Notes under the pieces: generated by a model
Told to the model about the DNA's origin: nothing
The model's database searches: none
What the model saw: only the letters and a program-made list of their open reading frames with translations
Shown here: positions 30,508 to 64,000 of the stretch, in pieces
Numbering within the stretch: position 1 is the first letter of the stretch
Layout: every line of letters starts with the position of its first letter
Made by a program: the position numbers and the translations under genes
NCBI RefSeq assembly: GCF_030419005.1
Contig: NZ_CP106953.1
Location: forward strand, 673,246-737,245
DNA: 64,000 nucleotides
From: Eleftheria terrae
Lineage (GTDB): Bacteria; Pseudomonadota; Gammaproteobacteria; Burkholderiales; Burkholderiaceae_C
Direction of reading: 5' to 3'

Positions 30508-33500
30508 ATGTCCGACCCCCGCCCTCCTGCCATCGAGAACGACACCGGCGCTGCGACCGCCGCCTCCTCCCGCAGTGCGGTGGCCGGCGTGCCGCTGTCG
30601 TCACCGCAGGAGATGGTGTGGCTGGACCAGCTGTGGCACCCACAGGTGCCGCTCTACAACATCGGCATGGCGCTGCACATCGCCGGCCCGGTCGACGCAG
30701 CGCTGCTGCAGCGGGCCCTGCAGCAGGTGGTGGACAGCCACGACGCACTGCGCCTGGTGCTGCACGCCGGCGAGGACGGCAGCGTCACGCAGTCGGTGCT
30801 GTCGTCCGTCCGGGTGGCCCTGCCGGTGCTGGACTGCCCGGACGCGGCCAGCGCGCTGCAGCAGGTGCAGACGGTGTTCCGGCGCCCCTTCGAGCTGTCG
30901 GGGGGACTGTTGTGGGAATCGCAGCTGGTGCGCGCCGGCGAGGCGGGCTGCTACTGGCTGCACCGCTACCACCACTTGATGACCGACGGCATCGGCGTGG
31001 CGCTGATCGGCCATGCGGTGGTGGACACCTACAACCGCCTGCTGGCCGGCGAGGCGGTGACGCTCGGGCCGGGTCCCTCCTACCTGGCCGCCATCGAGGA
31101 GGACGCCGCCTACCGGGCGTCGCCGCGCTTCGAGCGCGACCGGCAGTTCTGGCTACAGCGCTTTGCGGTGCTGCCGCCGCCGCTGGTGCGTCCCCGGCCG
31201 GTGGCAGGCGGGGCTGTCGCCCCGAGCGGGCAGGTGCACTGGACCCTACCGCGGGCGCTGTTCGACAGGCTCGCCGGCGTGGCGCAGCAGCACCGGTTGT
31301 CGATGGCGCACCTGATGCTCGCCGCCGTGGCCGCCTGCTTCGCGCGGACCACCGAGGCGCGCGAGATCGCCATCGGGGTGCCGGTACACAACCGCAACAC
31401 CGCCCGGCTCAAGCGCACGATCGGCATGTTCTCGTCCATCGTGCCCATCGGGGTGCGCGTGGCGCCGCAGCTGCCCTTCACGGCCTTGATGCAGGCCGTG
31501 GCGGCCGAGCTGCAGACCAGCTACCGCCACCAGCGCTTCCCGCTGGCCGAGATCAACCGCGGCCTGAAGCTGGGCCGGACCGGCCGCCGGCAGCTGTTCG
31601 ACCTGAGCCTGTCGTTCGAGAGCCTGGACGGCAACTCGCAGCTCGGCGGCGTGCCGGCCAAGGTGGTGACGCTCGACAACGGCCACGAGCAGACGCCGCT
31701 TGCCATCTTCGTGCGGGACTACCACCCGGGCGACGATGTCGCGGTCGACTTCAATTTCAACCTCGCGGCCTACGGCCACGGGACGGTGGAGCGCCTGCAG
31801 CGGCAGTTCGTGCGTCTACTGGAGGCCGCCGCCGAGGCGCCCGGGACACCGGTGGCGCAGCTGCCGCTGCTGGGGCCGCAGGAGCTGCAGGAAGTCGTTC
31901 ACACCTTCAACGACACGGCCGCCCCGCTGCCCCTGGCGCGCGGCGTGCACGAGCTGTTCGAGGCACAGGCCGCGCTGACGCCCGAGCGTGCCGCGGTGGT
32001 ATTCGGCGACGCGTCGCTCAGCTATGCCGAGCTCAATGCGCGGGCCAACCGGCTCGCGCACCGGCTCATCTCGCTGGGCGTGGGCCCGGATGCACGGGTC
32101 GGCCTGTGCGTCGGCCGCTCGCTCGACATGGCCGTCGGCCTGCTTGCGATCCTCAAGGCCGGCGCGGCCTATGTGCCGCTGGACCCGTCCTACCCCGCCG
32201 AGCGGCTGGCCTACATGCTGGCTCAGGCGCGGCCGGCCGTGCTGCTGACGCAGGCCCCGCTGCGCGCGGCGCTGCCGGCGTTCGACGCCGCGCTGCCGGT
32301 CGTGCACATCGACGCGGCCGGCGACCTGCCCGCCCACAACCCCGGCGTGGCGATCAGCCCCGGGCACCTCGCCTACGTCATCTACACCTCCGGCTCCACC
32401 GGCCGCCCCAAGGGCATCTGCCTGCCCCACCTGGCGCTGCTGAACCTGCTCGAATGGAGCCGGCTGCACCTGCCCAAGCCGCAACGCGCGCTCGCCTTCG
32501 CGTCGCTCAGCTTCGACGCCAGCTTCTACGAGTTCTTCACCTCCTGGCACACCGGCGGCTGCGTCTACATCCTCGAGGAAGAGGCCCGTGCCGATGTGCC
32601 AGCGCTCGCCGCCTTCATCGCCCAGCACCGCCTCCAGGCGGCCACCCTTCCCGTGGTGCTGCTGCAGTCGCTGGCCCACGCGGCCGACACGCTGGCGCCG
32701 CTGCACAGCCTGCAGTCCATCATCGCCACCGGCGAGGCCCTGATCCTCACCCCCGAGATCGTCCGCTTCGTGCAGGCCGCACCCGCCCGCCAGCTCCACA
32801 ACCACTACGGCCCCTCCGAGACCCACGTCGTCACCGCCGACACGCTGGCCTTCCCCCGCGATGCCCAGCTGGGCGTGCCCCCCTCCATCGGCCGGCCCAT
32901 CGCCAACAGCCAGATCCTGCTGCTCGACGAGTGCGGGCAGCCCGTGCCCGTGGGCGTCGTCGGCCAGCTCTACATCGCCGGCGACAACCTCGCCCGCGGC
33001 TACTTCGACCGCCCCGACCTCACCGCCGAGCGCTTCCTGCCCAACCCGCACGGCGCCCCTGGCAGCCGCATGTACAGCTCCGGCGACCTCGCCCGCTGGC
33101 TGCCCGACGGCCGCATCGACTTCCTCGGCCGCATCGACCACCAGGTCAAGATCCGCGGCTTCCGCATCGAGCCCGGCGAGATCGAGACCGCGCTGCTGGC
33201 GCTGCCCGGTGTGCGCGAGGCCGTCGTGCTGGCCCGCGAGGCCAGTGCCGGCAACAAGCAGCTGCTGGCCTACATCGTCGGCGACGAGCTCGACGCCGAC
33301 GCGCTGCGCCGCCAGCTCGCCCGCACGCTGCCCGACTACATGGTGCCGGCGCACTTCGTCGCGCTGGACGCCTTGCCCCTCACCAACAACGGCAAGGTCG
33401 ACCGCGCCGCGCTGCCGCTGCCCGAGCTGGGCGACACGGGCGGCCAGCATGTGGCACCGCGCACCCCTGCCGAAGCCGCCCTCGCCGCCCTCTGGTCCGA

Positions 33501-64000: not shown

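What the first reader, a model, noticed from the sequence alone, without database searches (positions are those of the whole stretch)
30508..64000. One uninterrupted NRPS gene of at least 33.5 kb, still open at the edge
The frame from ATG 30508 contains ten ordered modules and no stop. Most NRPS assembly lines of this length are split over several genes. A single polypeptide of more than 1.2 MDa is near the upper end of what is known. Gene finders that need a stop codon inside the window will miss it and call shadow frames instead.
Basis: seen in the sequence. Interest (0 to 1): 0.85.

Follow-up and report, generated by a model that had tools for sequence, protein, structure and literature searches.

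The report
Giant single-gene lipopeptide assembly line
This is one very long bacterial gene for a protein machine that builds a fatty-acid-tagged peptide of at least ten units; such machines are known, this one runs off the end of the sequenced piece, and it uses three times a building block that a neighbouring enzyme may make.

Summary
One frame, ATG 30508 to the window edge, is open for 11,164 codons (1.20 MDa) with no stop. It encodes ten NRPS modules: nine complete C-A-T and a tenth C-A. The right edge is also the end of the assembly's contig, and no continuation was found at the other seven contig ends. Its stop, release domain and true length are therefore unknown. It is a large gene of a known kind: kolossin synthetase is reported as 15 modules in 49.1 kb, and a genus relative has a 10,911-codon NRPS frame.
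New here: the cluster starts with mbtH and a PhyH Fe/2OG hydroxylase gene. C1 is a starter (lipid-loading) type domain; C2-C10 all fall outside the dual and post-E groups. A1, A2 and A4 carry the unusual pocket code DAYTITHVV; similar codes lie beside PhyH genes in cyanobacteria and a Streptomyces. Predicted chain: acyl-X-X-Thr-X-Gly-NMePhe-Thr-Thr-Gly-Gly-..., X perhaps made by the hydroxylase. Modules 1/2/4, 7/8 and 9/10 share A-domain tracts of at least 99% DNA identity, suggesting recent recombination inside the gene.

The parts
29198..29434 (+). mbtH-like gene (78 aa), first gene of the cluster; MbtH proteins are known partners of NRPS A domains (established knowledge)
   Evidence: Pfam PF03621, 91.5 bits, cut-off 27; one of 4 MbtH matches in the genome
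29609..30445 (+). PhyH-family Fe(II)/2-oxoglutarate dioxygenase (278 aa), ends 62 bp before the NRPS ATG; predicted hydroxylase that makes or modifies a building block
   Evidence: Pfam PF05721 103.5 bits; nearest solved sequences 7dzz (190 bits) and leucine hydroxylase 5nch (160.8 bits); the WHxD motif, a later His and an Arg align with nine homologues
30508..63999 (+). NRPS gene, 11,164 codons visible, no stop before the contig end
30577..31902 (+). C1, starter (lipid-loading) type condensation domain, HHLMTDG
   Evidence: falls in a clade (support 0.999) of 13 C domains, each the first C domain of its protein; 28-33% identical to C2-C10
30577..33723 (+). module 1: Cstart-A-T, A code DAYTITHVV (substrate X)
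33724..36888 (+). module 2: C-A-T, DAYTITHVV (X)
36889..40065 (+). module 3: C-A-T, DFWNIGMVH (Thr)
   Evidence: residue name recalled
40066..43233 (+). module 4: C-A-T, DAYTITHVV (X)
43234..46428 (+). module 5: C-A-T, DILQLGMIW (Gly)
   Evidence: residue name recalled
46429..50970 (+). module 6: C-A-(methyltransferase in A)-T, DAWTVAAVC (Phe), predicted N-methylated
   Evidence: same code as glidonin module 5, published prediction Phe
49510..49818 (+). methyltransferase core inside A6
   Evidence: Methyltransf_12 47.1 bits, cut-off 30
50971..54330 (+). module 7: C-A-T, DFWNVGMVH (Thr)
   Evidence: residue name recalled
54331..57693 (+). module 8: C-A-T, DFWNVGMVH (Thr)
   Evidence: residue name recalled
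57694..60990 (+). module 9: C-A-T, DILQLGLVW (Gly)
   Evidence: residue name recalled
60991..63999 (+). module 10: C-A, T domain lost at the contig end, DILQLGLVW (Gly)
31824..33651 (+). tract shared with module 4 (41334-43161), 16 mismatches in 1,828 bp: end of C, whole A, nearly all of T
32336..33430 (+). tract shared with module 2 (35501-36595), 6 mismatches in 1,095 bp: from just before motif A3 to just past A10
52411..54035 (+). tract shared with module 8 (55771-57395), 6 mismatches in 1,625 bp: whole A domain up to A10
59498..60421 (+). tract shared with module 10 (62861-63802): stretches of 287 and 607 bp with 1 and 6 mismatches, separated by a short length difference; from just before A3, ending before A10

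Best explanation
The gene is the single core gene, or the first core gene, of a lipopeptide cluster whose visible left part is mbtH - phyH - NRPS. Shown by sequence: a starter-type C domain, nine further C domains outside the dual and post-E groups, ten A domains, nine T domains, one methyltransferase embedded in A6. Inferred: C1 loads a fatty acyl chain, and the line then adds X-X-Thr-X-Gly-NMePhe-Thr-Thr-Gly-Gly and probably more, in L form, before release by a domain beyond the contig end. Inferred: X, used by modules 1, 2 and 4, is an amino acid hydroxylated (or otherwise made) by the PhyH enzyme. The gene grew by module duplication, and its repeated A domains were later copied onto each other by recombination inside the gene. 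Repeats of this kind at the contig end may be why the assembly stopped there.
For: Open frame and codon signal. Domains. C1 falls in a clade (support 0.999) of 13 C domains that are each the first of their protein. 0 of C2-C10 fall with the dual C/E domains or with the C domains that follow E-like domains in this genome's own C2 line; a branch of support 1.0 separates them. The code pipeline was checked on the glidonin synthetases: its 12 codes are in an order consistent with the published prediction (against passages of PMC10587159). PhyH link: 4 of 5 outside loci with a xTHVV code carry a PhyH gene; 0 of 33 other A domains with H322 and VV, VA or VI lie in a locus with one. Tracts at least 99% identical next to C domains only 33-78% identical in protein between the same modules.
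Against: No product, transcript or read data. The end of the gene is missing, so 'one gene for the whole line' is unproven. The PhyH association is partly by selection: 3 of the 4 positive loci were fetched because they carry PhyH, two of those near-identical (94%). Of 46 loci fetched by A-domain or module-1 similarity, 2 have the code; 1 of these 2, and 1 of the 46, has PhyH (L111, whose record I had already seen in the PhyH list). In a tree of ten PhyH proteins the window enzyme does not group with those of the code-bearing loci. C4 and C8 have HHxxxDA instead of HHxxxDG. In the C-domain tree the L-type domains are not one supported clade (join 0.026). The A-pocket positions are recalled from the GrsA literature.
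Confidence: 0.8

Rival explanations
1. The gene's length or module number is an assembly artefact: repeats were mis-joined or collapsed, and the real line is shorter, longer or split in two genes.
For: Exact repeats of up to 767 bp; the contig stops about 0.2 kb past the strict A9/A10 tract.
Against: The paired tracts differ by 16 (M1/M4), 6 (M1/M2), 6 (M7/M8) and 7 (M9/M10) substitutions and lie between different C domains. The frame never breaks and the codon signal is uniform. Four contigs for 7.0 Mb with 91 C-domain matches suggests long reads (inference).
Confidence: 0.1
2. The cluster uses ordinary proline at modules 1, 2 and 4, and the PhyH enzyme acts elsewhere (on the finished peptide, another residue, or an unrelated pathway).
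For: The code shares D235, I299 and the last H-V-V with the common proline code DVQFIAHVV, which glidonin module 3 has and which, exactly or in close variants, is read in the eight Xenorhabdus loci. Griselimycin A domains for methylproline were also predicted as proline (passages of PMC5676206).
Against: Four pocket positions differ (V to A, Q to Y, F to T, A to T). Among the 169 A domains scored outside the window, T at the sixth position with H at the seventh occurs only in five loci, four of which carry PhyH.
Confidence: 0.35
3. The line is no longer functional (decaying gene).
For: C4 and C8 have HHxxxDA; a transposase gene lies upstream of the cluster.
Against: No stop or frameshift in 33.5 kb; all A3 and A10 motifs intact, 10 of 10; all T-domain GGHS motifs intact, 9 of 9; third-position GC uniform at 0.93-0.96.
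Confidence: 0.05

Closest known systems
Glidonin synthetases GdnA/GdnB of Schlegelella brevitalea DSM 7029 (matches G006 here, same genus as the window genome)
   Same: Starter C domain, lipopeptide line, giant NRPS gene (frames of 3,266 and 10,911 codons), Burkholderiales
   Different: Two genes; dual C/E domains among the others; other codes; module 1 only 48% identical
Kolossin synthetase, Photorhabdus luminescens
   Same: Uninterrupted giant NRPS gene (15 modules, 49.1 kb; review passages)
   Different: Longer, makes a D/L pentadecapeptide; in the window line none of C2-C10 falls with dual or post-E domains
Griselimycin system with leucine hydroxylase GriE
   Different: The griselimycin NRPS is three proteins of six, three and one modules; no GriF-like dehydrogenase is visible in the window; the pocket code here is not the common proline code
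A-domain recombination in NRPS genes (PMC8097286, passages; PMC9205934, passages)
   Same: Exchange tracts in A domains with C domains left alone
   Different: Here the copies lie within one gene and keep, rather than change, the specificity. Three of the four tracts run on to A10 or beyond, and M1/M4 takes in nearly all of T; the first paper reports a trend to keep the native A sub-domain and calls a case that included part of T an exception

Membership tests
Modular type I NRPS | Repeated C-A-T modules in one polypeptide | tested here: met
   10 C, 10 A, 9 T in one frame
Modular type I NRPS | Catalytic motifs intact (HHxxxDG, A3/A10, GGHS) | tested here: met
   8 of 10 C domains have HHxxxDG, C4 and C8 have HHxxxDA; A3 and A10 motifs 10 of 10; T-domain GGHS 9 of 9
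Modular type I NRPS | Terminal release domain (TE, R or C-type) | not testable with these tools
   The gene runs off the contig; no continuation found at the other seven contig ends
Lipopeptide NRPS (starter C domain) | First C domain belongs to the starter group | tested here: met
   C1 lies in a 0.999 clade of 13 first-in-protein C domains, including GdnA's, which the paper calls a starter domain. Five other first-in-protein C domains in the tree fall elsewhere
Lipopeptide NRPS (starter C domain) | Acyl chain on the product | not testable with these tools
   no product data
GriE-type free amino acid hydroxylases | PhyH-type family with the iron and 2OG residues | tested here: met
   Pfam PF05721; WHxD, later His and Arg aligned; their roles are recalled
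GriE-type free amino acid hydroxylases | Hydroxylates leucine at C5 en route to 4-methylproline with a partner dehydrogenase | tested here: inconclusive
   Nearer to PhyH entry 7dzz (190 bits) than to GriE (160.8 bits). No ORF of 200 aa or more lies between the transposase and the NRPS except the PhyH frame and overlapping antisense frames; downstream sequence missing
Glidonin-type line | Same module order and specificities | tested here: not met
   Codes and C types differ
Kolossin-type D/L peptide line | Domains that set D residues (dual C/E or E) | tested here: not met
   0 of C2-C10 in the dual/post-E group, visible part only; that kolossin synthetase has such domains is inferred from its D/L product

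The most novel reading that the evidence does not exclude
The pocket code DAxxxTHVV marks an A-domain class for one specific amino acid made by a paired PhyH hydroxylase. The pair occurs in Betaproteobacteria, cyanobacteria and Streptomyces, and this gene uses it three times in a giant, all-L lipopeptide line whose duplicate A domains are kept identical by copying within the gene.
Probability: 0.4. Interest if true: 0.55.

Novelty: new member of a known kind. Interest (0 to 1): 0.4.

Why it matters
The line is a candidate new lipopeptide from a genus that already yields glidonins. The code-plus-hydroxylase pair gives a directly testable rule for predicting an unassigned NRPS building block. 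The near-identical A tracts inside one gene are a natural record of which A-domain segments can be copied between modules, which bears on NRPS engineering. The case also shows how such a gene can be cut by a contig end and so escape annotation.

Tried and rejected
Looked for the rest of the gene in the same assembly: Pfam T and TE searches, and three-frame reading of the first 300 bases at the other seven contig ends with BLAST of their outer 15-20 kb, gave nothing. One search failed on file names and was repeated. A DNA search with the last 6 kb found its own place and, in the listed part of 179 matches, only more distant NRPS copies of 92% identity or less.

Thought G006's line might be the orthologue; its codes and C types show it is the glidonin line. 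The Xenorhabdus loci found with module 1 share a starter module but carry proline-type codes. An early note that the contig ends 11 bp after the A9/A10 repeat came from a loose alignment; the strict tract ends about 0.2 kb before the end.

Structure prediction of PhyH from one sequence was useless (mean pLDDT 36.3), so no fold search was made. Phage records gave no match to the first 2 kb of the NRPS. Hits of module 1 on plasmids were distant NRPS genes, none covering 80% of the query.

Full report
Observation. The frame from ATG 30508 runs 11,164 codons to 63999 without a stop; the nearest upstream in-frame stop is at 30478. Codon-position GC (0.75-0.81 / 0.47-0.52 / 0.93-0.96) is uniform along it, and the other five frames carry 14 to 195 stops. 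The visible protein weighs 1,201,443 Da. The window is G000:C4:673246-737245 and C4 is 737,245 bases long, so the window edge is the contig edge. The genome has 7,032,382 bases in four contigs. Reading the other seven contig ends in three frames each, BLAST of their outer stretches, and genome searches for T and TE domains found no continuation. The end of the gene is therefore probably not in this assembly.

Anatomy. Pfam and motif searches give ten C, ten A and nine T domains in order, plus a methyltransferase inside A6 between its core and its C-terminal part. The next gene upstream (29609-30445) is a PhyH-family Fe/2OG dioxygenase that ends 62 bp before the NRPS start codon. Before it lies an mbtH gene at 29198-29434. 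Further left are a transposase gene, then T6SS VgrG and Rhs genes that do not look like part of the cluster.

C-domain types. I made a FastTree of C domains from the window, two own-genome lines (on contigs C2 and C4), G006, G042, G190, G090, G262 and five Xenorhabdus loci (a first, slower tree ended in a labelling error before it could be shown). C1 sits in a clade of 13 C domains (support 0.999), each the first C domain of its protein and one of them that of GdnA, a published starter domain. Five other first-in-protein C domains fall elsewhere in the tree. None of C2-C10 falls in the group that holds the dual C/E domains and the C domains that follow E-like domains in the own-genome C2 line (that those are E domains is inferred from the weak Condensation matches just before them). 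A branch of support 1.0 separates the two sides, but the L-type domains themselves do not form one supported clade (0.026). So the visible line should make an acylated, all-L peptide. This is prediction, not product data.

Specificity codes. The pocket positions are those of GrsA, recalled, and were read from an alignment of the A domains. As a control, the same pipeline on G006 gave twelve codes in an order that fits the published prediction for glidonin GdnA/GdnB (Phe-Asn-Pro, then Val-Phe-Pro-X-Val-Ala-Ala-Ser-Ala, with a partial A in module 13; passages of PMC10587159; code names recalled). This also identifies G006 as S. brevitalea DSM 7029 or a very close relative, so the window comes from a Burkholderiales bacterium of that genus as grouped here (inference). 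Window codes: A1, A2, A4 DAYTITHVV; A3 DFWNIGMVH (Thr); A5 DILQLGMIW (Gly); A6 DAWTVAAVC (the code of glidonin module 5, published as Phe); A7, A8 DFWNVGMVH (Thr); A9, A10 DILQLGLVW (Gly). Names for the Thr and Gly codes are recalled.

The unusual code and its hydroxylase. Proline-type codes in related loci read DVQFIAHVV or close variants. The best PhyH match on plasmids is in Nostoc sp. UHCC 0926 (43.6%), where the gene directly follows a module with code DAHIITHVV. I then scored 54 loci: 35, all fetched by similarity to module 1; 11 plasmid loci fetched by A-domain similarity, 4 from the list and 7 from that; and 8 plasmid loci fetched by PhyH similarity (169 A domains). T at the sixth code position with H at the seventh occurs in 5 loci: L100, L104 (A domain in two pieces), L105, L111 and L031. 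Four of them carry PhyH; L031 (Brasilonema) does not in the 20.5 kb held. Of 33 other A domains with H there followed by VV, VA or VI, none lies in a locus with PhyH. Told with its selection bias: of 46 loci fetched by A-domain or module-1 similarity, 2 have the code (L111, L031), and the only one of the 46 with PhyH is L111, a Streptomyces; I had seen its record in the PhyH list before fetching it. Of the 8 loci fetched by PhyH, 3 have the code, two of them near-identical, and 5 do not. The window PhyH does not group with the PhyH of the code-bearing loci in a small tree. An exact-pattern search for the A1 stretch FYEFFTSW found it in 1 of 398 phylum genomes, the window's own, three times. 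The pairing is therefore suggestive, not proven. No ORF of 200 aa or more other than PhyH and overlapping antisense frames lies between the transposase and the NRPS, and no dehydrogenase is annotated in L104, L105 or L111, so a hydroxylated residue seems likelier than methylproline (inference).

Repeats. Strict tracts: M1/M4 1,828 bp with 16 mismatches (end of C, A, nearly all of T); M1/M2 and M2/M4 1,095 bp with 6 mismatches each (just before A3 to just past A10); M7/M8 1,625 bp with 6 (whole A to A10); M9/M10 two stretches of 287 and 607 bp with 1 and 6 (from just before A3, ending before A10). The C domains of the same pairs are 33-78% identical in protein. Sharp edges, and substitutions between the copies, point to recent copying between modules rather than to an assembly error. 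A-domain exchange is well described (passages of PMC8097286; of PMC9205934).

How unusual. A review reports the kolossin gene as 49.1 kb and 15 modules (passages). In the genus, G006 has a 10,911-codon frame; in the family, G190 has 9,553 and G090 7,059. In 399 order genomes, 42 (the own genome included) had C-domain matches at E <= 1e-100; of 105 listed matches 4 are its own, and none of the other 101 lies in a frame above 5,675 codons (up to four matches scored per genome; genomes at least 95% complete). The highest identity listed for module 1 outside this genome is 48%, in 60 genomes (own included) and 399 family genomes (own included), so no orthologue was found in those held sets.

Verdict. 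A real, intact-looking, giant lipopeptide NRPS gene, new member of a known kind, cut by the contig end. The part worth following is the code DAxxxTHVV with its PhyH partner.

Noticed in passing
window 17552-20863 and 20884-25797, + strand: VgrG (Phage_GPD, T6SS_Vgr, DUF2345) and Rhs genes of a type VI secretion island, left of the NRPS cluster
   Followed up: no
window 26712-27689, + strand: DUF772/DDE transposase gene between the Rhs gene and mbtH
   Followed up: no
window 4007-5764, - strand: Hybrid histidine kinase with an ETR1-like (ethylene receptor type) N-terminal domain
   Followed up: no
window 22-1740, + strand: Alginate-lyase-like protein with a LamG-type domain
   Followed up: no
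G000 contigs C2, C3, C4: The genome is very NRPS-rich: 91 Condensation matches, with frames of 9,245, 8,184, 7,314, 6,519 and 6,213 codons besides this one
   Followed up: partly
L014 (G000:C3:720265-721608 and flanks): NRPS on C3 whose best solved match is teixobactin synthetase Txo2 (1,076 bits, 766 residues), with two TE matches in the same frame at 723466-723840 and 724351-724803
   Followed up: no
L104 6595-9846 (Trichormus variabilis ATCC 29413 plasmid C): The A domain beside the PhyH gene is split into two reading frames, and in the related Nostoc carneum locus L105 a reverse-strand gene lies between the A gene and the carrier-protein gene
   Followed up: no
L111 (Streptomyces sp. NBC_00280 plasmid): The stretch with a DAHIITHVV A domain and PhyH also holds a peptide deformylase gene, a possible self-resistance gene
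   Followed up: no
L016/L019/L024 (G000 contig C1, 55 kb): Short contig of lower GC (0.62) with three copies, 91-97% identical, of a stretch of about 0.5-0.7 kb
   Followed up: no
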